Shown piece by piece: positions 5,216-59,134 of a stretch of DNA of 64,000 nt (position 1 is its first letter; every line of letters starts with the position of its first letter). The notes under the pieces are model-generated. The model was not told the origin of the DNA. It did not search any database and saw nothing but the letters and a program-made list of their open reading frames with translations. The position numbers and the translations under genes are program-made. The stretch is from Sipunculus nudus (taxonomy: Eukaryota; Annelida; Sipuncula; Golfingiida; Sipunculidae): positions 52,976,750 through 53,040,749 of the forward strand of contig CM049318.1 of NCBI GenBank assembly GCA_026874595.1. Reading direction: 5' to 3'.

Positions 5216-5493
5216 AGTACAGCCAAGAGGCAATAGACCTACATGGATCCTGTCCTACAAGTACTCAACTCACTGTCAGTCGAAGCGCACTCGGCTGTAT
5301 TCGTGAACGTTTCCTCCGCTTCCAATATATACAGTTCAGAGCTTAATTGAGCCGTGTATGTCCCAGTTAGAAAAGCTGACCTTTGATGCCGTCATCAAGT
5401 ACATGAACCGAGAATTACGTTGTTCTCGGCTCAAATGAAAATAAGTCTCCGCTTGTGAAATGCACTAAAGTTCGACCAGGTTAATTGTAATAT

Positions 5494-5645
5494 CGGGGCC
5501 GGGACAGTTCAGTGGTAAACCACTCGGCCCTCTCCTTTGACGCCCCGGGTTCGATCCCCGGCGTGGCTATGAGAGTGAGCTGTAACAGCCCGTCTAAAGC
5601 ATTTGGTTTTCTTTGGGTTCTCCGTTTTCATCCATCAATAGATAC
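5494..5645 (+). repeat. SINE A, tRNA-derived (copy 1)
   Basis: A GC-rich tRNA-like head has an A box (cagttcagtggtaaac) and a perfect B box (gggttcgatcc), then a body with gagctgtaac and a tttgggttctccg motif. It is repeated at 10,229 and 19,050 in the other tandem copies and on the minus strand at 20,468 and 32,474. There is no anticodon-arm structure or 3' end suggesting a functional tRNA gene. Confidence 0.75.
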
Positions 5646-6579
5646 TATCTAACATTATAACCTAAGGCCACTAAGAGTGACATGATAAGTAACTATGATT
5701 AATAATTATTTTTTACAATCTATGTGAACTGAATAAATTTCAAAATACTTCAGATTTGGTGAACCAAATGTTGGCGGAGATATGCGGTCTCTCAGCACTT
5801 TCTGTTTTATAAATGATATAGTATATACGGAAGGTCTGGTCGGTAAAGAAATATTAAAAAAATATTGTGTACTGAGACAGCTTAAACTGCCAAAGAGCTG
5901 CGCTTGTGTTATTCCGGCATCCTAGGGTTTATTGCCGTACTCATCATGTTCAGAATGTCAGACCCCCCGGCAGTGCTGTGACAGCCTCGGGGGAAGTGCC
6001 TGGAGTATATAAATACAAACACAACAGCACGACCTTGTCTTGATGGCTACCGAAACATTCTCTTAGCAGAAACGTCCGGAAATACTGTCACTTGCTGGCT
6101 CTTTCTCGCTCTTCGTAGAATCGATGAACGGATAAGGGTATTTGACTTTTATATCTGCAAAGATGGATTTTCTGGTATAAAAAATTTCTTAAAATTTTTC
6201 TTCAATATAAAGGTTGTGAAGAGAAGTGGATTTAGTTGTGGTGCCCCTATCCCCTATTTTTCAACCTAAGATTTTCGAAACAGAACAACATACGCTTAAA
6301 ACCGAAATACAGGCTATATATTAGTCTGGCATTGTTTTTTTTCCAATATTTCTGCATACAAGATTTATGCATACCAGCTCTCCCGATACACTTGTTTAAC
6401 CGTGCAAGGGCGATGCCCCCCCCCCCCCCTTTCCATAATCCTGTATCCAACCTCGGTGAATATGATGTGCAGCTGGTGCTGTCTATTAATAGAAGAATAA
6501 TTAAGATCACCGTATCCTAATGAATGGATCTAATTTGGAAATATTATTTGTATTTGCTCGTTGTTTTAATCATTTATAT

Positions 6580-7325: not shown

Positions 7326-8644
7326 CCAAGATTAAAATTGTTACTTAAGAATTCAAATATATTATCTGATTCATAGGTAATTTATGACACAACTATTCAG
7401 GGGCTATCCATCTCAAAAATATAAAAGTTCTTTTTCAGTGATTGGGGATTTTGAATTAGCAAGGTGAAATGATGTTTAAAATACTTTAATGATATTATAC
7501 AGATTTTTATATAATATATTGTGTATTCGATTGTTAAATTATGTTGGTTTGCTTATATCAACTTACTATTGGATGATTTACATGTATTTATTTAATATTT
7601 GATGATAATCAAGCATTTTTATTTAGTAAATGAAATAATAGTTCTTAATGAATCAAAATAAATGAATAAAAATCCTCGTTATAAGTTGTATTTGTTATTA
7701 TATTTTTCTTTATACATTTGAAGAAATAATCTTGATTAATCAATAAATAAATAGATGTGTTGGAATATAAATTAAACCACTAAGTCAACAATTGTAAACA
7801 CAAATCAAGACTCGAATCTCTTCTATATTAAATGTTGATAGAATTGATTTACGGTATTATAAAGCAGGCTGGTATTGCAACATACAAGCAGAGGAGGTTT
7901 ATTACCTGGTGCCTTAAAAACAATGGCAAATGTGTCAATTATGGCACCGCTCGGCTAAACGCCACGCGTTCAAAGGGTGACACAAGCCACGTGAACCTCA
8001 TTACACTTGCATTACTTTCATTGGGCTATAACCAATACATATTTTATGAAGCTGGCTTAAACGTACCAAACCAAAAAAGAATATGAAATCAAAGTTCCTT
8101 TTGTTATGAAGGGCAGGAAACAATTTCCCCCATATATAATAAATGTATTTTTTTTTTTTACATTTTATTTTACCTTATTGTCTCTAGCTTTTATAATAAA
8201 GGACGCCGACGCACAATACAACATTAAGGCCTTTAAAATCGCAATATCTCTATTAATGTTTGGCGATTCAATCCTTTTCTGAAAAGAACAAGCTTTAGTT
8301 TAATCTCCCGCGAGGATTATATTATATATATTTCCTGCAGCTTGCCAAAACGTAATACACCTGAACAGAATTGTAAAGTGATCTGTGAGAGAGTTTTAAG
8401 TCTATTTTTGAAACTTAGGTCTGTCTGTCTCTCCCTCTCCCATTTTCTCTGACTCTCTCTGTCTCTCTGTTTCTCCTTTTCTCTGTCTCTCTCTCTCACA
8501 CTTTCTCGTTCTTGACGTCATATAATCAGTTTAGCTGTCTGTCCTTCTGTTCGTTGGTCTGTGTGTTTGTATATCTCTCTCTTTCTCTAACTGTCCCTCT
8601 TTTCATTTTGCATATACACGGGTCACCTTTTGGAATTAAATGCA

Positions 8645-9962: not shown

Positions 9963-10228
9963 TAACCATGAGGCAATAGACCTATATAGTCTTACAAGTA
10001 CTCAACTCTGAGTCAGTCGAATCGCATTCGGCATTATTTGTGAACGTTTCCTCCGCTTCCAGTATATACAGGTCAGACCTTATCGAGCCGTGTTTGTTCT
10101 AGTTAGAAGAGCGTATCCTTGATGCAGCCATCAGGTATATGAACCGAGACACACGTTTCTCTCGGCTCAAATGGACAGAAGTCTTCGCTTGTGAAACACA
10201 CTAAAGTTTGGCCAGAGTAATAGAGATA

Positions 10229-10378
10229 TTGGGGCCGGGGCAGTCCAATGGTAAACAACACGGCCCTCTCTTCTGACGCCCCGGGTTCGATCCCCGGCGC
10301 GGCTTGAAGAGAGAGCTGTAACGGCCCGTTTAAAGCCTCTGGTTTTCTCCGGATTCTCCGGTTTCAACCGTCAATAAT
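10229..10378 (+). repeat. SINE A, tRNA-derived (copy 2)
   Basis: Same head and body as at 5,494, including ccccgggttcgatccccggc. The antisense reading yields the spurious 66-aa ORF at 10,167-10,367. Confidence 0.75.
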
Positions 10379-11362
10379 GTACTATCTAACAACGGGACCT
10401 TAAGGCACGAAGAGTGACATGATTAGTAACTATGATTCCTAACTATTTGTACAATTCACGTAAACTGAATAAAGTTTGAATTGATTCGAGTTTTGTGAAC
10501 CAACATGCTGGCGGAGGTATGTGGTCTCTCAGCACTTTCTGTTTCATAGATGATAGCCGCAAATATAGTATATATGGACGATCTGGTCGGTATTGAAATT
10601 CAGCTGGGCAATTAATTTGTACTAAGACACCAAAACTATCAAAGAGTCATGCGATGTGTAATACCGGCATGTAAAGTTTTATTGCCCTGCTCAGCCTGTT
10701 CAGAATGTCAGACCCCACGACAGTGCTGCGACAGCCTCAGGGGAAGTGCCTGGAATATATAAATACAATCATGACAACACGGCCTTGTCTTAATGGCAAC
10801 CGAATCACTCTCCTGGCTTAAACGTCCCGAAATATTGTCACTGGGTGGCTCTTATTCGTTCTTCGTGGAATCAATGACGGCTAAGGATATATGACCTTCA
10901 TATATGCGAAGATAGATCTCTGGTACAGAAAAGTTTTTGCTCCTGTATAAAGGTTTTGATAAGGGAGGGGTTTAGAGGTTGCGCCGAGGACGAGTGCCCC
11001 CCCCCCCCCCCCTATTTTTTACCTAAATTATGACAAATAAAATTATACATGCTTAATACCGAAATGCCGCCCCAGTTGGTATATATTAGTCTCGCATTTT
11101 TCTTTCCGATATTTTTGCATACAAGATTATTTGCATTAAGTCTACTAGCTCTCCCGATGGAAACACTTGTTTAACCGTGCCAGGTAGCGGACCCCCCCCC
11201 CCCCCCCCCTCCTTCCTTAATCCTGTGTCCAAACACCTTGAATATGATGTGCAGCTGGTGTTGCCTATTAACAGAAGTTTAATTAAGTTAATCGTATCGT
11301 AATGAATGAGATCTAATTTGGAAATATTATTTGTATTTGCTACTTGTTTTTATGCTGTATAT

Positions 11363-11519: not shown

Positions 11520-12949
11520 ATATATTACGTTATAAACGTAACGTATATGCTGATTCAGATTCCTGATAATTACTTTAATATTAACACCGTACAGGATTAC
11601 TTAACTCGTAACTGCAAGGGATTCTTGGGATCTTTAGTACATAATCAAGAGATTCCAGATCTTGAGAATACGCATGAGAATGACTTTTTAAAATATTTTT
11701 AATGGATGTGATCTCCTGTATTATTTTCAATGTTAGCTTAACTAAGTATATATACATCTGCAGAATTCCATGCCGGATTTGCACGTCGTACTTCGTAAAT
11801 ATTTTAATACAAAATATTGTGTATTCGATTGTTAATTCCTGTAGGTTTTGCTCATATCAGCAGAGAAGTAAGAATTCTGTTTACTACTGGATGATTTACA
11901 AGTATTTATTTAATATTTTATGACAATTAAACATTTTTTATTTGTAAAAAGAAAATAATAATCCTTAATGAATGAAAATGTGAATAAGAATACTCCTTAT
12001 TCATAGATTAATTATTCATAAAATAAATTATTTTAATTAATATATTCTTAATTAATACATTTGGAAAAATAATCTTAAGTAATTAATAAATTAATCACTT
12101 TGTTGAATTATAAATAAACCCATTTAAATTGTTAACACAAATCAAGACTCGGATGTCTTCTATATTATATGTTGATAGCATTGATTTACGGTAATATGAG
12201 GCAGGTGGATGTTGCAACACACAAGTAGCGGAGGTTTATTACCTGTTGCCTTGAAGACAATGGCAAATGTGTCAATCATGGCACCGCTCGGCTTAACGCC
12301 ACGCGTGCCATGGTGACACAAGCCACGTGCATGTACTTTCACTGGGCTATAATCAATACATATTTTATGAAGCTGGCTTAAACGTACCCAAGCTAACAAG
12401 AATATGAAATAAAAGTTCCTTTTGTTCTGAAGGGCAGGAAACAATTTCCAGAATACATCATAAGTGTAATTTTTTTTCACATTTTAATTTACTTTATTGG
12501 TTACGGCTTTTATAATGAAGGAAGCCGACGCAAAATTACATCATCGAGGACTTTGAAATTGCACTGTCTCTTTTAATGTTTGGCGATTCAATCCTTTACA
12601 GAAAAAAAAAACAGCTTAAGTTTAATCTCCCGCGAACAAATATATAACTCAGCTGAAAAGAATTGTTAAGTGATCTGTGAGAGAGTTTTAAGTCTATATT
12701 TGAAACTTAGGTCCCTTTTCTCTGACTCTCTCTGCCTCTCTTTCGCCCCTTTTCTCTGTCTCACAATGTCTCTCCCTCTTCCCCTTTTCTCTGTATTTAC
12801 CTGTCTATCTTTCTTTCTATCGACCTTGATCTTTCCTTTTTTTCCCTCTCTCTCTCTAACACTTTCTCGTTCAGTACGTCAGTGAATCAGTTTAGATGTC
12901 TGTCCTTCTGTTTGATAGTCTTTCTGTGTATATATCTCCCCTTTTATCT

Positions 12950-18890: not shown

Positions 18891-19049
18891 AATATATGTC
18901 AGACCTACGTGGAGCTGGCTCTGTCTAGTGGGAAGAGCTGACCTGTGATGCAGGTATCACGTAAACGAACCGAGACACGTTTATCTCAGCTAAATGAAAA
19001 TAATTCTTCGCCTGTGAAACACACCAAAGTTCTATCAGGATAATAGTTA

Positions 19050-19202
19050 TATTGGGGCCTGGGCGGTCCAGTGATAAACCACTTGGCTTTTTCCTCTGAC
19101 GCCCCGGGTTCGATCCCCGGCATGGCTATGAGAGCGAGTTGTAGCGGCCCGTCCCATGCCTTTGTTTTTTTCCGGGGTTCTCCGCTTTCTTCGATCAATA
19201 GA
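19050..19202 (+). repeat. SINE A, tRNA-derived (copy 3)
   Basis: Same head (cagtgataaaccacttgg; B box gggttcgatcc) and body with a ggggttctccgctttc motif. Its antisense gives the 70-aa ORF at 18,986-19,198. Confidence 0.75.
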
Positions 19203-19787
19203 TAATAGCTAACGATAAGACCTAAGACACGAAGAGTGACATGATTAGTAACTATGATTTAAAACTATTTGTACAATCCATGTAAACAGGATAAAGTTCG
19301 ATAAAAATCGAAATGAGTAAGCCAAAATGTTGGCAGAGATATGTGGTCTCTTAGCACTTTCCGTTTCATATATGAAAGCCGCAAATATGGTATATACGGT
19401 CGGTCTGGTAGGTATAGAAAGTTCAGCTTCGCAATATATCTTGCACTGAGACAGCTTAAACTGTCAAAGAGTGCTGCGATGTTTAACTCCGGCATCCTAG
19501 GGTTTTTTGCCCTACTCATCCTGTTCAGAATGTCAGACCCCCGGGCAGTGCTGCGACAGCCTCGGGGGAAGTGCCTGGAGTATATAAATACAATCACAAC
19601 AACGCGGCCTTGTTATGATGGCTACCAAATCACTCTCCTGGTTGAAACGTCCCGAAATATTGTCACTTATAGTCGCCCTTCGGGGAATAGATAAATAGAT
19701 GAAGGTATATGACCTTTATAACTGCGAAGATGATTTCCGGAACAGAAATCCACCAGAATTTCTTAAAAGTGTTGCTTCAATATATAG

Positions 19788-25096: not shown

Positions 25097-25098
<2 letters not shown>

Positions 25099-25841
25099 CT
25101 ACGGAACCTAATAACAACAAATCACGTAATCGTGACGAGCAATTTTGTTACGGAGAAAGAGAAAAAATCAGATTAATCAACACTAAGCGCGTGAAATGTC
25201 TAGGGGAATGAATAAAGAAGACAGTGGTTTTTTGTTAACAAATAATTATAGTTTATTCTTAGAACAATCCTAACATTCCAATACACTAAATCAATACAAT
25301 TGCACATTATAACAATACTAAAAATATACATCGCCAGAGTGGCCGGATCCTATGCTTTTATTTCTGGATACCTTCACTATCACAGCTCAACAAGAGTCAT
25401 TTAGCACAAGTAATCCATGTAAACAGTTCAAATAAATCTTCTCATAGAATAGTCCGATTTAATCGCGAAAACAATCTGTGTAATCCAAAAGTGAAGTTCT
25501 AGTAAGGCAAACTGTGCAATCCGTATAAAATCTGTTACAAAATCCGTAGAATATCTGTAAGTTCTGTAATTATCGGAATAGGCCGTAAAAATTGAAGAGA
25601 GAGTCACACTCTTCCGTGTCCGCTGGTATTTTCCTCTCTGCCGGCTCTAAACACATCCCCTATATATAGCTTTTCCATCCGAAGCCAAGAAACGTCCATA
25701 TTCACGAACATACAACGAGCACTGTGTCTCTACAAGCAAGGGTACAAGTACAGTTCCCATAGCAAGGCCACCTGCTTGGGCCCAACACGAATCAGAATGC
25801 CACGCAAAATCATGAGCATAATAAAACAGATACCTGTAACA
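25097..25841 (-). repeat. 3' LTR of the retrotransposon
   Basis: This 745-bp LTR runs on the minus strand from TGTTACAGGT to GGTTCCGTAGCA. The solo relative at 50,538 is 899 bp. Relative to the other LTR (30,279-30,801) it lacks about 57 bp near 25,710. A GC-rich block with a tatatatag motif near 25,665 is shared by both and could hold the promoter. Confidence 0.85.
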
Positions 25842-25908
25842 CTCCTGTAAGTTGACTGAAAATTTTCCCCAAACACTAACTTTTTGCGATCAGAATCTGA
25901 AATTTTTT

Positions 25909-27160
25909 ACAACATTTCAAAACCATCTTCTTTACAAATTTGCATAAACATCTTGTTTACAACATTTGTTAAATATCTCGATAAACAATCAGCACGTACA
26001 TTGTCTTTCCCTTTAATGTGTCTGATTTCAAGATTTTAATCCTGTAGAACCAATTTCTATCTCAACAATCTTTGATTTTAACACTTCAACTTGTTCATGA
26101 ACGTGAGGGGATTGTGATCACTGAAGACAATGATAGGCTTGACTGATGAAGTAACATAAACTTCAAAATGTTGCAATACATAAATCAAAGCCAAACATTC
26201 TTTTTCAATAGTGAAGTAGTTTTTTTTCTGGTTTGCATTATACTTTCTTGAAAAATAACAAATTGGATAATCTATGCCATCACTGCCTTCTTGTAACAAC
26301 ACACCACCACCAGCAGGATCACTAGCATCTACAGCTAACTTAAAGGGTACAGAAAAGTCTGGAGCAACTTGAACTGGTAAACTTTGCAGAATTGCTTTCA
26401 AATTCTAAAAGGCATTTTTACCCTGAACAATCCATACAACTTTTGCTTCTTCTTTAAAAATTTAGCTACAGCAGAACAATTTGGACAAAACTTCCTGTAG
26501 TATCCAACCATACAAAAAAAAACGCATTATTTGCAGATGTTTCTCCCAGGTGTCGCTGTACATGATGAGGTCATCAATATAAGCCTCGCAGCCCTGAATG
26601 TCCTTGAAAAGCATATGGATGAGGCGCTGGAACATGGCTGGCGAGTTCTTCATGTCAAACGGCATAACTTTATACCGGTACAGTTCTCTTGTTCTCTCAG
26701 CGGAACTTGCCAGAATCCTTTAGCAAGTCAAACTTGGAAACATATCTTGAGCTACCGACTCTATCAATACAATCATCGATCCTCGGAATCGGGAACGTGC
26801 CAGTATTGGTTACAGAGTTTAGTTTTCGATAATCTGTGCACACACGGTAATTTCCATCAGGTTTGGGCGCAAGAATACATGGTGAACTCCAGTTACTGTT
26901 ACTAGGTTCAATAAAAGCATTGTCCAGCACATGTTGAACCTCATCTTGTAGATACTTTGCTTTCCTGGATTCAGTCTATAAGACTGCTGCTTGACTGGGC
27001 TTGCCTCGCCAACATCGACGTCATTGCACAATATGTTAGCTCGCATTGGAATGTCACTAAACAAATGTTGAAAATTCCGCAGCAGGTTCTTGAGGTCTTG
27101 TTTTTGTTGCCCGGTAAAGTGTTAAGCACGTCTGAGTTCTTTAGTGGTCCTGTTCCACAC
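25909..27160 (-). pseudogene. Reverse transcriptase-RNase H pseudogene
   Basis: The linker (NFQHLFSDIPMRAN) leads into RT motifs (SNWSSPCILAPKPDGNYRVC, FPIPRIDDCIDRVG, KFDLLK). A frame change and a short deletion follow, then MPFDMKNSPAMFQRL and the catalytic YIDD at 26,581-26,570. Most of the thumb is deleted between KHLQ and the downstream FFGMVGYYRKFC-like stretch near 26,500. RNase H is open at 26,401-26,078 and keeps FKLAVDASD, TIEKECLALI and FSDHNPLTF, which hold the D-E-D residues. After that, stops interrupt a readable IRHIKGKDNVRADCLSR end. All motifs are Ty3/gypsy type. Confidence 0.9.
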
Positions 27161-27164
27161 TGAA

Positions 27165-28055
27165 TGTCATACTTTGTTTTCATTTTACTTTGTGCAGATT
27201 TAAGATTTGACTTTGCAATCTCACAAGCATTTTGTAGTATAATGCGAAAGTCTGAGACATACAGCAATAAACTCAGAGAATCAGGATTTCCACACAAGAG
27301 TTTTTTAAGCAGTTTTACTGGACTGAGTGTCCAAAAACTAGGTTCAAGGGACTGAAACCCAAGGACTCTTGAAAAGATTCTCTAACAGCAAACAGCAATA
27401 GGTGGATTCGTTCATCCCAGTCTTTCTGTGTGTCATATAACAATAGGTCCTCATCATGTTTTAATGCCTGGTGAAAACGGTCGAGGGCGCCCTGACTTTC
27501 AGGATGATATGGGGAAGAGCTGCACTGTTTTATACCTAGCTGAAGCATAACTTGCTGGAATAAGCCTGACATAAAATAAATGTTGGTAATCCAACAGTGT
27601 AAAAAACTTGGTCATAGCCTTGACAACACTTTTGACATGAATTCTGCGCAATGGTATTGCCTCAGGGAACATGGTAGATGCGCACATAATTGTCAGCAAG
27701 TATTCATGTCCAGATTTTGTTTTGAGCAGTGGTCCAACACAATCAACAATAATCCTACTAAATGGTTCCTCGAAAGCAGGAATAGGCCTAAGTGGGCCTT
27801 TAGGAGGATTCTGACTGGGCTTGCCTACCATATGGCATGTGTGGTATGATTTACAGTATTGTACAACATCTCTCCTCAGATTAGGCCAATGGAAGTGTGT
27901 ACTAACTTTCTGATACGTCTTATTTTTACCTAAATGGCCAGAAAAAGGGCTTTTGGGCACTACTATTTGATGTTTTGGCCCACTCATCATCAGCGCATAC
28001 ATCAGGTGGTCGCCATTCACTCATAAGCACTCCATTTTTAACATAGAAACAAACT
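27165..28055 (-). pseudogene. Integrase pseudogene
   Basis: The N-terminal zinc-binding domain is readable (FSGHLGKNKTYQ, HFHWPNLRRDVVQYC). The first His-containing stretch is lost and the first Cys of the CxxC pair is Tyr (CKSYHTC). The catalytic core begins with IIVDCVGPLL (first Asp). It then suffers a 1-base shift and a small deletion near 27,570-27,590 that removes the segment carrying the second Asp. The third catalytic residue survives in YHPESQGALDRFHQ. The C-terminal part (VSDFRIILQNACEIAK, KMKTKYD) leads directly into the RT linker. In most Ty3/gypsy elements integrase follows RNase H; here it precedes RT. Confidence 0.85.
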
Positions 28056-29176
28056 TGGTTTTGTGACAGTTCATCTTTAGAAACTGCCCTTGGAAACAAA
28101 CAGGGTCCTTATACTGTTCCGCGATAGGTTCTGACCTTGAAAATGCTGCATCTTGTACCGGCGAGTCGTTATACGAGTCACTAGTGACTCCAAGGGTGTT
28201 ATTATCTGGACCATTATTCTCATGTGTGTTTTTCTTGGCCATAAATCTAGTTACAGCACATGAGGATACAAACCAGGAATTTCCTGATTTTCAGGATCAG
28301 TGTCCTTATCAAGTGACGGCTTTTTTGTCAATATTGGTACAGGCTGTACTTTGTCACCTGCAACATCATTGCCTTATATCAACTGAATTCCCTAAAGGGG
28401 TAAAGCAGTCCCTATGCCTAGAGAAATATTCCAAAAAACCAAATCTGACTTTCAATGAAGACTGTTAAGCGGAACTGAAGTGTGTTTGTCTGAAAACACA
28501 CCATTAACAATTGCACGTGCACCAGTAAAAGACCTATTAGAAAATGGCTTAGTGTTTGCTTACAAGAGGGTGGTCTGAACCAGTGTCCCTCAAAATTCTA
28601 AAAAGGGTAAAATCTGAAAATCACTTGAAAGTGATACAACCCATCATGTATGAATGGCTTAAATACCTCCATTTCAGAGTCAGGAGAGGAATCTACTACC
28701 TCAATTTCATCAAACAAAGAACTGACACTGACACTCTCAGCCATAAACTCGTTTTCAGGGTCACTAAAGGAATCTACATCCTTATTACAATCAAGCTCCT
28801 CATGGGAATCAACAGAGGAATTTTCCTAAGCAGAAATAAACTTTCATAAGAGGACCTGGCCTTATTTGAAAGACTCTCGCAAGAGTCATCAAAGTACTTA
28901 GCCATATTTAGAGGATACTCCTCGCAGGAGTCTTGAAAAGACATGGCCTTATTAGATTCCTCGCAGGAATCAAATGAGGTTTTTACCCCGCAAGCTACGG
29001 ATGCTTTTTTGGAGTCAGACGGCACGTTGGCCCCCGTAGCATCAAATTTTTTTTCAGTCAATAAAGGAGTTGTACCCCTGATTTATATGAAAAGAGCTTG
29101 GCTCTTGTATTTTGCTATGCATAGATTTTGAAACAAAACCAGAAGGTTTGCTCATTGGTTTATTTGCGAGTTTCTA
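28056..29176 (-). pseudogene. Gag-Pol linker and protease remnant
   Basis: On the minus strand, 29,061-28,774 is an open acidic segment with a repeated DSCEE/DSCES motif. An aspartic protease active site (LRDTGS; DTGS at 28,587-28,576) is readable. Frame-shifted from it are protease-like stretches (TGARAIVNGVFSDKH near 28,520) and the conserved end GNDVAGDKVQP near 28,360. A linker (ORF 28,242-28,021) leads to the integrase N-terminus (near 28,020). Several stops and frame changes rule out a functional product. The domain call rests on the DTG and GND-GDK motifs, which are standard in gypsy proteases. Confidence 0.7.
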
Positions 29177-29327
29177 GCTGTCAGATATTAGATGACCTTC
29201 CTTTTTGCAGTAATTACAGTTTTTCTTGGACTTTTTTTTAACTAATAGGAATACTAGAACTGGGTGACTGCGCCTTTAACTTCTTTTGAACATACTGATT
29301 TATATTCTTGTTTGTGAATGACTGGTT

Positions 29328-30245
29328 TTATTTGCTTGTAAAGGACATTTTATGTGTTAATGAATAATCATCGGCTGATTGAGCAGCAATGTCAAGTGTT
29401 TCAGGACTTTTCTCATCAAGGAAAGTTTTAACACCTGCGTTTAAGCAGCGCTTAAATTCTTCAAGCAAAATCAACTGGCGCAAATTGTCATAATTTTTCT
29501 TTACATTTGTAGAACAACACCAGCGATCAAACAATTGCTCTTTAGTCCTAGCAAATTCTACATAGGTCTGTTCTTTGCGCTTTTCCCAATTTCTGAATCT
29601 CTGGCGGTAAGCCTCCGGAACTAACTCATAATCTTTTAGGATTGACCGTTTAACCTGGTCATAGTCAGCTGCGGCATCTACTGAAGCTCTGTATAAATTT
29701 CTCTGGCCTTGCCAGTCAATACACTTTGTAAAAGCATAGTCCAATTTCCCTTAGGTCATTTTAAAAGTTACCTCCTAAAAGTGTAAGAAATATTTATCAA
29801 CCTTTTTTTTCTCGAAAGGTGGGACAAGCCTAATGTGTTTAGTAACATCAAAACAGTGAAATGTGGCAGCATGTAGACCATGTTCTAATGGGTCTTTCTA
29901 ACTCAAGTCGTTTTAACTCAATTATATTTTTCTTTGTCTCCCTCATGTTCTTCCCTTTCTCACTGTTTTAATGCTAGCTCATGTTGCAATTCAAACTTTT
30001 TTAATTCTAACTGCATAGCAAGCTGTCATTTTTTTTTTTTTATTTTCCACTTCACTCTGTTCAGTTTAACCTTTGCCAACTAGATCTTGCATGGTTTTAG
30101 CAATGATATCAGGCTTTCTAAAAGTTTTTTTTTTCACACCAAGCGCTAAGTGTTGTCCCAAACGCAACAACTGATCTTTTGTCAACTGTTCAAGTTGATC
30201 AGGGTTGGGATCTTCAACAAATACCTCAGATTTTAAATCTGCCAT
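29328..30245 (-). pseudogene. gag: gag pseudogene
   Basis: Gag would form the particle that packages the RNA. The start is the ATG at 30,245 (MADLKSEVF), followed by an acidic N-terminal segment (QLTKDQLLRLGQHLAL) typical of Gag of this gypsy group. The reading frame breaks between about 30,066 and 29,744, where an ELKRLELER-like linker is readable in another frame. The capsid-like domain is open at 29,744-29,328 (YELVPEAYRQRFRNW, YVEFARTKEQLFDRW, LRQLILLEEFKRCL), a SCAN-like signature of vertebrate and invertebrate gypsy Gag. A nucleocapsid zinc knuckle follows at 29,218-29,177, reading C-x2-C-x4-H-x4-S with the last Cys changed and a stop directly after it. Confidence 0.85.
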
Positions 30246-30278
30246 GTTAAGATGTTTAAACAATAACAAAAAAAAACA

Positions 30279-30797
30279 CTCAACAAGAGTCCTTTAACAC
30301 AAGTAATCCACTCAAGCAGTTCAAATAAATCTTCAAAGAGAATAGTACGATTTAATCGTGAAAAAAAAATATGATGTAATCCAAAAGTGAAGTTCTGGTA
30401 AGGCAAACTGGGCAATCCGTAAAAAAATCTGTTTCAAAGTCCGTAGAATATCTGTAAGTTCTGCAGTTATCGGAATAGGCCGCAAATAACTGACGAGAGA
30501 GTCACACTCTTCCGTGTCCGCTGGTATTTTCCTCTCTGCCGGCTCTAAACACATCCCCTATATATAGCTTTTCCATCCGAAGCCAAGAAACGTCCATATT
30601 CACGAACATTCCAAACACAACAATACACGCGCCCCATAGCGCATGAACAGACCCGAAATCTTTAGACTACAACGAGCACTGTGTCTCTACAAGCAAGGGT
30701 TCAACAAGTACAGTTCCCATAGCAACGCCCAAGGCCTGAGCCCAACAAGTATCAGAATGCCACGCAAAATCCTGCGCATAATAAAACAGACACCTAT

Positions 30798-30801
<4 letters not shown>
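30279..30801 (-). repeat. 5' LTR, truncated at its internal end
   Basis: Homologous to 25,386-25,841 from ctcaacaagag onward and ends with the same terminal sequence (cacctataaca). The part matching 25,097-25,385 is absent. Only about 33 bp separate the truncation from the gag start codon, so the R/U5 end, the primer-binding site and the leader are gone. Confidence 0.85.
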
Positions 30802-48872: not shown

Positions 48873-50537
48873 CGACTGAATCGAATAAAGTTAGTTGGGC
48901 AATGCATTATAACATTAAAATTTAATAGGTGAGGTTATACATTAACCTTCGAATACGTTAAACAACGGCTGATAGAACAGAGCTGCCCTGTTAAACAAGC
49001 GCACCTACAGATTCAAGGGCCACTGTTCGGGGCGCTCCACAAAGTGAACAGACAGACTGGCGCCCGCAAATGGGACTATATTTTCTGGTGTGCTTCATAT
49101 TCGCTATGTTAAATATTCGTGATTTTCACTTTTCCATTGTTTTGAAAGGGGGGGGGGGTGTTATTTGATTTACACATACAGTAACTTGCGTTTTGCAAAT
49201 AACCATCGTTATATCACTTGCCTAATATGTACACAAATTCTTGACAATGGCACCAGGAGCTAAAGAAAAATCGAACAGATGAAACATTTTCACACAATAG
49301 TGGCAGATATAAAAAGAATTTATATTATTTAAATAATCAGTCTTACGGGTAAGATCAAATGTATGCTAATATTGAAACTATCGGCACAATATACGTGGAA
49401 TGCCATTGAGGCTACAGAATAAATTACTGTCTACCTTTGGACATGTGGTGTCTTATTTTCGCGAAAAATTCACCTTCGCAAACAAAGCGAATTTGGAACC
49501 CTCGCGTTTAAAGAGACAGCCACAGTATACATGATCATGAAACCCATAAATAATACCACGCTTTACGTAATACGCAAATCTCCTGTCAGGACGCTTACGG
49601 ATCTGGTACTCCAACTAGACACCATTTATCCTTATTACAAAAAAAATATTTAACTGAACAGAGGAATGTGACTTAATGAAATATTACGAAAATGCATTAT
49701 AGAAATTATAAAAGAAACAATGAAATAGGTGCTCCTGTTTATAGCCGAGTCATTTTGAAGACAAACTTTTACACAGGGCAAAACACGTTACAATAGAGAT
49801 TGCTTATTATAAGTATGGACGGGTGTAAAAGATCACTCATTTAAACTCCTTGGTCTAAACTAAAGCTCACAAAGTGCAATAGTTAGATATCATTGTATCG
49901 TCTACATTATCAAAAACAAGAAATGATAAGAATCCAGTCAGAGCTTGACCTGAGGATATCGAAACAAAATGAGTCAATGACTGAAGTATGTAATATTCCC
50001 ACCCATAGACAGACGGACATACAGACGGACTGACAAACCCTTACATAGCCGAGACAATCCATAGTCAAACTCTCAGCAGCAACAGCTGTTTGACAACATA
50101 AGTGTGCTATGTGGAATGTGACTTCGGAGGCTGAGGGAAGTCATTACATATATTGCTGTGTGTATTCGCTGCCATTTTACTGGCTAATAATGTGTTTTGA
50201 CACCAGACGGCGGGCAAGCATACCCTGAAATGTATGGAACAACTGGCAGCCAATCAATATCCTCTATACATAGCGATATATCAACAATAGGAAACTTTGT
50301 ATAAGATTCCCGGCATAAACCGCCTGTTCATTGCGACTGGAATATATTTTTCTGAAGTCTACTAACATGTTAGTCTTTCTTTGCAACCAAACTGAGTTTT
50401 AAACCTCTGACAGATGATTAGGAACCGTATCACAAAGCATGTATTTTAAACATTAAGCTATTTGCCCAAAGTGGTAGAAGATGTATCAATGCAAAAGTAC
50501 TAACCCATTGGCTCAACCAGTCTTACTCAATAAACTA

Positions 50538-51435
50538 TGTTACGGAACCTAATATCAACACATCACGTATGCGTGATGAACATAAATTTTGTAATGGAAA
50601 AAAATAGAATCTGTAACACTAGGCAGCCTGAAATGTCTAGGAAAATGAATAAAGAAATCAGTGTTTTTTTTGTTAACAAATACTTATAATTTATTCTTAA
50701 TACAATCCTAACATTACAATGCACTAAATCAATACAATTTCACAGTATAACAAGAGTACAACAGCAAATCAATACAAGTGTATAAATAAATTGTACAGTA
50801 CCTTGATACCACTACTGTCACAGCGACAACAAGTCCCTTATAACGTACAACTTAGATGAACAGTTCACATGAATCTTCTTGGGAATAACAGTCCAGTTCA
50901 TTCACAAATCAATCCGTTGTAATCCAAAAGTTATTGTTATTATCCCGAAAGCAAACTGAAGACTATACAAGATCCGTCACAAATTTAGGAAAAAATCTAT
51001 AACTGCCGCACTTGTCGGAAAAGGTCCACAACTGAATTACACTCTTCTGTGTCCGCTGGAATATTTCTCTCCTCTCCCCTGGCTCTAAAACACAGCCCCT
51101 TATTTATAATTTTTCACCTAAAGCCGAGAACTTTCCATTTCTCGAACAATCCAAAAAACCCAATAATACACACATTACAGGAAACATCTAGAACAACGAA
51201 TGCTGTGTTTCTACATATCAGGGTTCACACGTGGGCCGGCCCGGCTTGGCCAGGCGAGAAAGCACCAGACTAGCATGACCGCTGTGTTTACACGTTGGCC
51301 GCACCCGGCCAGCTAGAACAAGGAACGCTGTACCTTAACAACGCACAGGGCTTGAGCCAAACACGAATCAGAATGTCAACAGCGCACAATAAAAGAGACA
51401 TTTCATCAGCTCACAATAAAACAGACATCTGTAAC

Positions 51436-51436
<1 letters not shown>
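50538..51436 (-). mobile_element. Solo LTR of the Gmr1-like retrotransposon family
   Basis: On the plus strand it begins TGTTACGGAACC and ends CTGTAACA, like the left LTR at 25,097, and is collinear with it throughout. It is 899 bp, the fullest LTR in the window, and keeps the block that is deleted from 25,097-25,841. The flanks acta (50,534-50,537) and acta (51,437-51,440) form a 4-bp target duplication. The right flank continues into (AT)n. ORFs at 51,049-51,513 are not genes. Confidence 0.85.

Positions 51437-51438
<2 letters not shown>

Positions 51439-51485
<47 letters not shown>
51439..51485. repeat. (AT)n microsatellite
   Basis: AT array immediately next to the solo LTR. Confidence 0.95.
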
Positions 51486-58667: not shown

Positions 58668-59134
58668 AATTGTGCTACATCCAGTGAAAGATACTCAAAA
58701 GCAAACTAAAGTCTATATAAAATCTGTTACAAATTTCAAGAAGATCTATAACTGCTACAATTATCGGAAAGGTCCACAAACTGACTCACACTCTTCCGTG
58801 TACGCTGGAATATTTCTCTTTCCTCCCTTTGGTTCTAAAACACAGCCCCTATTTATAACTTTTTTATCCGAAAATTCCATAAACTTTTTTTCACGAACAA
58901 CCGAAAGAACCCAACAATACATAAAACATACGCCTAGAGAACATTACAAGACACGCGCTCATAGAGCGCGACCAGCCCAGAAATTTCCAGATTAGCATGA
59001 GCCCTGTGTTTCTACACGTCAGACCCCTCACGTGGGCTGGCCCGGCTCGCGCGTCTCCCATGGCAACGGACAATGCTAGCGCTACACAGACACATGCAAG
59101 ACTGCTGCACACAATAAAAGGGACACCTGTAACA
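58668..59134 (-). mobile_element. Truncated LTR of the Gmr1-like family
   Basis: Collinear with 50,920-51,436 (tataaaatctgttacaaatt, cacactcttccgtgt, cacagcccctatttataac) and ends in acctgtaaca at 59,134. The TGTTACGG half is missing. ORFs at 58,654-59,236 are LTR translations. Confidence 0.75.

What the first reader, a model, noticed from the sequence alone, without database searches (positions are those of the whole stretch)
25097..30801. Ty3/gypsy retrotransposon with integrase upstream of reverse transcriptase
On the minus strand the remnants read gag, protease (DTGS at 28,587), integrase (WPNLRRDV, IIVDCVG, YHPESQGALDRF), then RT (YIDD at 26,581) and RNase H (LAVDASD, SDHNPLTF). All domains are gypsy-like, but the order is copia-like. 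This is the hallmark of Gmr1-like elements, first described from deuterostomes. Finding one here either informs the host's identity or extends the clade's range.
Basis: partly seen in the sequence, partly recalled or inferred. Interest (0 to 1): 0.75.

Follow-up and report, generated by a model that had tools for sequence, protein, structure and literature searches.

The report
Integrase-first Gypsy retrotransposon, Gmr1-like
This is a decayed copy of a jumping element whose enzyme genes stand in an unusual order; the order is real and shared by relatives elsewhere in the genome, but this kind of element is already known from vertebrates, sea squirts, crustaceans and a worm.

Summary
Confirmed. 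Window 25,097-30,801 (minus strand) is one decayed LTR retrotransposon. Between its LTRs the order is gag, protease, integrase (IN), RT, RNase H (RH). All domains are Gypsy-type. The order is no nesting accident: of 10 relatives fetched around integrase matches, 9 read IN-RT-RH on one strand and the tenth (RT missing) IN-RH; one met through its LTR agrees. In 24 of 24 SCAN/IN coordinate pairs (window included) SCAN lies upstream on the same strand. A second, distant IN-first family has IN, RT and RH in open frames; 7 other Gypsy loci (6 families) read RT-RH-IN. RNase H and integrase trees join the two IN-first families (80-86%); the RT tree does not. No named Gmr1 sequence could be put in a tree. 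Gmr1-like elements are already in print for crustaceans and an annelid, so 'deuterostome' is out of date. The host is probably a bivalve (inference); the mollusc survey I read names no Gmr1 clade. New member of a known kind.

The parts
25097..30801 (-). whole decayed element; flanked by ATAT on both sides, but inside a TA repeat, so the target duplication is not informative
30279..30801 (-). 5' LTR, its inner (3') part deleted; no primer-binding site seen
   Evidence: 11 of 12 other copies with both LTR ends aligned are 794-831 bp
30066..30247 (-). N-terminal stretch of gag (MADLKSEV...)
   Evidence: no Pfam hit
29349..29618 (-). SCAN-like capsid domain of gag
   Evidence: Pfam PF02023, E 1.2e-13, 51.1 bits, cut-off 27
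29177..29218 (-). degenerate gag zinc knuckle CX2CX4HX4S (last Cys lost)
   Evidence: read directly from the translation
28576..28587 (-). protease motif DTGS
   Evidence: same motif in 6 of 11 relatives
27499..28020 (-). integrase: zinc-binding H2C2 and first part of the catalytic core
   Evidence: PF17921, 50.7 bits, cut-off 25.5
27315..27611 (-). integrase, second part of the core (YHPESQGALDRF), in another frame
   Evidence: rve_3 below cut-off; matches the IN of the second IN-first family at 41%
26999..27121 (-). linker just before RT
   Evidence: found before RT in 10 of 11 relatives, L033 lacking it
26697..26975 (-). RT, first part
   Evidence: (below cut-off)
26462..26719 (-). RT palm with YIDD
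   Evidence: PF00078, 42.6 bits, cut-off 29.6; PDB best hit Ty3 RT, E 2.9e-7
26078..26404 (-). RNase H
   Evidence: PF17917, 83.7 bits, cut-off 24.8
25097..25841 (-). 3' LTR
50538..51436 (-). solo LTR of a related family, 4-bp target duplication ACTA (50,534-50,537 and 51,437-51,440)

Best explanation
A decayed copy of a high-copy Ty3/Gypsy LTR retrotransposon of the Gmr1-like kind, in which integrase is encoded before RT-RNase H. Shown: domains, order, LTR ends, a SCAN gag, linkage of SCAN with integrase and of integrase with RT and RNase H in relatives. Inferred: it moved like other LTR retrotransposons. Gag with a SCAN/capsid domain forms the particle, the protease cuts the polyprotein into the same set of enzymes whatever their order, reverse transcription starts at a tRNA (a candidate PBS was seen in one relative, resembling a tRNA-Pro site as I recall it), and integrase inserts the DNA with a 4-bp duplication. 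Many insertions later recombined to solo LTRs. The window copy is dead: frameshifts and stops, no PBS seen, LTRs 8.3% apart.
For: Domain order and types. LTR pair around the whole. Of 10 loci fetched around integrase matches, 9 have IN, then RT, then RH on one strand and L033 has IN then RH with RT missing; L019, fetched by its LTR, has IN, RT, RH, LTR. The 150 best SCAN and 150 best integrase places give 24 pairs within 6 kb, the window's own among them, all same strand, SCAN upstream by 1,672-1,947 nt in 23 and 982 nt in one, none on opposite strands. A second IN-first family (C5:22,249,200-22,252,625) is open from integrase through RNase H and stops just after it; the RNase H search gives its frame as 1,600 aa. 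Canonical control: 23 of 23 RNase H/H2C2 pairs have integrase downstream of RNase H, as do 7 of 8 fetched Gypsy loci. RNase H and integrase trees join the two IN-first families with 86, 85 and 80%. LTR ends TGTTAC...GTAACA; 4-bp duplications clear at 3 of 12 LTRs with both ends aligned (L012, L013, L023) and at the window's solo LTR.
Against: The RT tree does not join the two IN-first families, though it does not reject joining them (AU p 0.42); the RNase H and integrase trees do not reject the one rival placement I tried either (AU p 0.09-0.22). The window's RT pieces score better against canonical families than against the second IN-first family. No named Gmr1 sequence was available. The 150 best RNase H places share no pair with the 150 best integrase-piece places, so IN-to-RH order in the window's family rests on the fetched loci alone.
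Confidence: 0.92

Rival explanations
1. A canonical Gypsy element in which a second element's integrase was inserted or a rearrangement moved the integrase forward in this copy only.
For: The window copy is broken in many places, and nested insertions are common in such repeats.
Against: IN-first order in 10 of 10 loci fetched by integrase (one lacking RT) and in L019; 24 of 24 SCAN-IN pairs in the same orientation, the window's own included; a second family carries IN, RT and RH in open frames; no further LTR copy between integrase and RT in the window.
Confidence: 0.03
2. The IN-first order arose here independently of the Gmr1 lineage, a second origin of the same architecture.
For: RT tree does not unite even the two IN-first families of this genome; no named Gmr1 sequence was compared.
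Against: SCAN-type gag, reported for Gmr elements only in the frog survey (PMC4131045, passages) and said to be the source of the vertebrate SCAN domain (PMC3424704, passages), is present; RNase H and integrase trees unite the two IN-first families.
Confidence: 0.08
3. A Ty1/Copia element misread as Gypsy because of its order.
For: Order is the Copia order.
Against: RT, RNase H and integrase match Gypsy-type models; no Copia RT model (RVT_2) is listed at E up to 1 for the 8 pieces; best solved relative of the RT piece is Ty3.
Confidence: 0.005

Closest known systems
Gmr1 and Gmr1-like Ty3/Gypsy elements (Gadus morhua, Ciona and others)
   Same: Gypsy-type RT, RNase H and integrase with integrase before RT; SCAN-type gag
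   Different: host appears to be a bivalve rather than a deuterostome; no sequence comparison with named members was possible
LGF3 of the annelid Lamellibrachia luymesi (PMC8220671) and GyRex4 and relatives in crustaceans (PMC3587641)
   Same: protostome elements assigned to the Gmr1 clade by their authors
   Different: known here from text only; sequences not compared
Second IN-first family in the same genome (L047/L044, L048)
   Same: IN before RT (L047/L044), frame ends just after RNase H; 34% identity in integrase, 37% in RNase H
   Different: frame open (1,600 aa); RDSGC instead of RDTGS protease motif; gag not examined
Ty3 and canonical Gypsy families of the same genome (L039-L043, L045, L046)
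   Same: domain types
   Different: integrase after RNase H (Ty3 order by its residue numbers)

Membership tests
Gmr1-like Ty3/Gypsy | Gypsy-type RT, RNase H and integrase | tested here: met
   Pfam; Ty3 best in PDB for the RT piece
Gmr1-like Ty3/Gypsy | integrase upstream of RT | tested here: met
   window; 9 of 10 IN-selected relatives IN-RT-RH, the tenth IN-RH without RT, plus L019; second family in open frame
Gmr1-like Ty3/Gypsy | SCAN-type capsid in gag (reported for over half of Gmr elements, in frogs) | tested here: met
   PF02023 51.1 bits in the window; 150 of 150 scored places over cut-off in the genome, of 2198 candidates; 24 of them paired with an integrase place
Gmr1-like Ty3/Gypsy | groups with named Gmr1 elements in RT/integrase trees | not testable with these tools
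   I found no named Gmr1 sequence in the collections at hand; a scan of viral contigs gave no relative
Gmr1-like Ty3/Gypsy | IN-first families form one clade apart from canonical families | tested here: inconclusive
   RH 86, INa 85, INb 80 for (INa and INb share most rows, so are not independent); RT not united; AU tests reject neither
Ty1/Copia | Copia-type RT (RVT_2) | tested here: not met
   no RVT_2 listed; RVT_1 and RT_RNaseH matched
canonical Ty3/Gypsy | integrase after RNase H | tested here: not met
   no recognisable integrase between 26,078 and the 3' LTR (by eye)

The most novel reading that the evidence does not exclude
IN-first, SCAN-bearing Gypsy elements are a large part of the repeats of a bivalve genome, which also holds a distant IN-first family still in open frames. 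If a proper tree joins them to vertebrate, tunicate, crustacean and annelid members, the IN-first order and the SCAN capsid were both present before protostomes and deuterostomes parted, so the SCAN domain of vertebrate zinc-finger proteins comes from an element family far older than vertebrates.
Probability: 0.45. Interest if true: 0.5.

Novelty: new member of a known kind. Interest (0 to 1): 0.36.

Why it matters
It gives a well-supported, high-copy case of the rare integrase-first Gypsy order in what is probably a mollusc, where a survey of nine genomes plus database sequences (PMC6238403, section 6 read) names six known Gypsy clades and Gmr1 is not among them. It shows a SCAN-type gag in a probable protostome element, which bears on where the vertebrate SCAN domain came from. 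One genome with both orders and several families would allow a direct test of whether the domain swap happened once.

Tried and rejected
Nesting and one-copy rearrangement: rejected by relatives. Copia: rejected by domain type. Host by mollusc hemocyanin (PF14830): 0 matches, but the controls rang in 0 as well, so uninformative. Host by COX1: of 11 matches, 10 are long intact frames that look bacterial; the one piece read (C123) is a cbb3 oxidase subunit, so no mitochondrial clue. C1q: 141 matches among 150 scored of 203 candidates, many in clusters, which I read as fitting a bivalve (expansion recalled, not tested). Annelid haemoglobin linker (PF16915): not completed. A scan of viral contigs with the integrase piece: 2 pattern matches, no relative. 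PDB search with the gag piece: 0 matches at E up to 0.01. My first protease screen used a pattern too strict to match the window's own motif and gave 0 of 11; the looser one, limited to 400-800 nt before integrase, gave 6 of 11.

Literature: Gmr1 searched with integrase/RT/gypsy, octopus/Gypsy, SCAN domain/gag, mollusc (20 of 21 listed), 'Gmr1-like', SCAN domain/gypsy/bivalve (0 papers) and Ty3/annelid. In these listings and the papers opened I saw no Gmr1 report from a mollusc (PMC6238403 has the word once, in its Background); most listed papers were not opened, and subscription papers are not held. Goodwin and Poulter 2002 and Emerson and Thomas 2011 were seen only as reference entries; the latter is not held.
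Full report
What is there. On the minus strand of 25,097-30,801 lies one LTR retrotransposon. The LTRs are 30,279-30,801 and 25,097-25,841; in the shared part they differ at 38 of 456 aligned sites, K2P 0.088. The 5' LTR lacks about 290 bp of its inner end, and I see no primer-binding site. Between them the pieces read: gag N-terminus; a SCAN domain (PF02023, E 1.2e-13); a worn zinc knuckle; DTGS at 28,587; integrase (H2C2 zinc domain, PF17921, 50.7 bits, then the core in a second frame); RT with YIDD (PF00078, 42.6 bits); RNase H (PF17917, 83.7 bits); 3' LTR. Four of the 8 pieces given to Pfam pass the curated cut-off. By eye nothing resembling integrase follows RNase H. The copy is dead: frames are broken in many places.

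Is the order real? The genome holding the window (G000, 1.43 Gb) was searched with window pieces. The integrase piece had 5,550 first-look candidates, of which 150 were scored and listed; the LTR had 3,593 candidates, 40 scored. Candidates are not copy counts, but the family is plainly large. I fetched ten of the twelve best non-window integrase places (L029-L038). In 9 of 10, integrase, linker, RT and RNase H follow on one strand, with similar spacing except L037, where about 1.3 kb splits RT; in L033 RT is missing and RNase H follows integrase. Matches to the window's 3' LTR lie beyond RNase H in 7 of the 10 (L029, L030, L032, L033, L035, L036, L038); in 6 of these 7 only the last 220 bp or so of the LTR match, so these are a related subfamily rather than sister copies. 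Of 20 loci fetched by LTR only L019 has pol, in the same order; L010 has gag; the other 18 show LTR matches but no coding piece, as expected of solo LTRs or fragments.

Independent linkage. SCAN had 2,198 candidates; 150 scored, all over cut-off, the window's own among them. Pairing these 150 with the 150 integrase places within 6 kb gives 24 pairs (the window and two of the fetched loci included): all same strand, SCAN upstream, 1,672-1,947 nt apart in 23 and 982 nt in one. With the 150 best H2C2 places SCAN gives 13 same-strand pairs, 12 with SCAN 1,575-1,743 nt upstream; in the other, the H2C2 lies 4.6 kb on the upstream side and belongs to a neighbouring canonical element; that SCAN has an RNase H 3.3 kb downstream. 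By contrast 23 of 23 RNase H-H2C2 pairs have H2C2 downstream (564-975 nt), the canonical order. The RNase H list and the integrase-piece list share no pair, so for the window's own family IN-to-RH order rests on the fetched loci. All these lists are capped at 150. Chance pairs would be about 0.2 per comparison (my arithmetic: 150 x 150 x 12 kb / 1.43 Gb).

A second IN-first family. Of 8 Gypsy loci fetched around high-scoring RNase H matches, 7 (L039-L043, L045, L046; L039 and L040 are one family at 98.7% identity) read RT-RNase H-integrase in one frame. L044 stops 24 residues after its RNase H domain. The 2.1 kb before it (L047) is one open frame with H2C2, rve and a Tf2-1-like SH3 match below cut-off, in that order before RT, and a protease motif RDSGC. 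L048, another place, ends the same way; L049 reads on past RNase H. The window's integrase pieces score best against L047 (94.7 and 75.5 bits against at most 68.6 and 47.0 for canonical families) and its RNase H against L044 (78.2 against at most 67.8); its RT pieces score better against several canonical families.

Trees (LG+G4, ultrafast bootstrap). RNase H 86, integrase first part 85, second part 80 for joining the window family with the second IN-first family, against six canonical families and Ty3. The two integrase trees share all rows but the window's. RT does not join them (45 and 44% for other groupings). AU tests: RT does not reject joining (p 0.42); RNase H and integrase do not reject the one rival placement tried (p 0.09, 0.15, 0.22). 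So one origin is favoured by two of three domains and not proven.

How it works (inferred from LTR-element biology). The element would make Gag and Pol, with the protease cutting out integrase and RT-RNase H; the order in the polyprotein need not change the chemistry. LTR ends are TGTTAC...GTAACA; 11 of the 12 copies with both ends aligned are 794-831 bp and one is 706. Four-base duplications are clear at 3 of those 12, L012 (CTTT), L013 (AGTG) and L023 (ATGT), and at the window's solo LTR 50,538-51,436 (ACTA); two more lie in TA repeats and the other seven show no exact one. In L010 the stretch after the 5' LTR reads TTGGGGGCTTGTCCGGGAT, which resembles the tRNA-Pro primer site as I recall it; not tested against the host's tRNAs, and one copy only.

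What is known. Gmr1 elements have integrase before RT (PMC6238403, PMC8220671, PMC3587641, passages). The SCAN domain was found in over 50% of Gmr elements and only there among the frog elements (PMC4131045, passages), and the vertebrate SCAN domain is said to come from a Gmr1-like gag (PMC3424704, PMC4592553, passages). First protostome members: crustaceans, 2013 (PMC3587641, passages); an annelid, 2021 (PMC8220671, passages and Discussion). PMC8556966 (passages) says Gmr1 is present in several phyla, but did not find that clade in its own annelid data. The mollusc survey (PMC6238403, section 6) names C-, A-, B-clade, CsRN1, Cigr-1 and Tor2 as the known Gypsy clades retrieved; Gmr1 is not among them. 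One of its 16 MolGy clades could still be IN-first; I could not check.

Host. Not named by the tools. In some searches the listed places fall on contigs C1-C17; the 15 whose lengths I saw are 63.5-110.9 Mb. The assembly also carries at least one bacterial contig and several that look bacterial. C1q matches: 141 among 150 scored, 203 candidates. The lucinid clam Indoaustriella scarlatoi has 1.58 Gb on 17 chromosomes with 42.66% LTR elements, and its family is chemosymbiotic (PMC11830101, abstract and passages). A symbiont-bearing bivalve, perhaps a lucinid, is my inference; an annelid was not excluded.

Verdict. It is a new member of a known kind, more interesting for its copy number, the SCAN gag and the second open-frame family than for the order itself.

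Noticed in passing
G000 contigs C60, C61, C62, C66, C72, C74, C75, C89, C123: The assembly seems to contain bacterial contigs: COX1-type genes with 577-578 aa frames on eight contigs (not read), and a cbb3 oxidase subunit on C123, 83% to a Shewanella plasmid record; symbionts or contaminants.
   Followed up: partly
G000 C4:34803129, C3:64478560 and eight more: A canonical Gypsy family with open frames of exactly 1,304 aa at ten of the 150 listed RNase H places, suggesting recent activity.
   Followed up: no
G000 C5:22252166, C5:80583450, C6:26038986: Places with long open frames (1,600, 1,594, 1,600 aa); the first is a second IN-first Gypsy family, the third ends in the same residues after RNase H, the second was not examined.
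   Followed up: partly
window 58,698-58,921: Fragment 79% identical to part of the solo LTR at 50,538-51,436.
   Followed up: no
window 5,346-6,127; 10,082-10,877; 18,992-19,702 and 774-1,131; 7,789-8,156; 12,126-12,477: Two sets of three dispersed direct repeats, 81-91% alike, with no match to the element.
   Followed up: no
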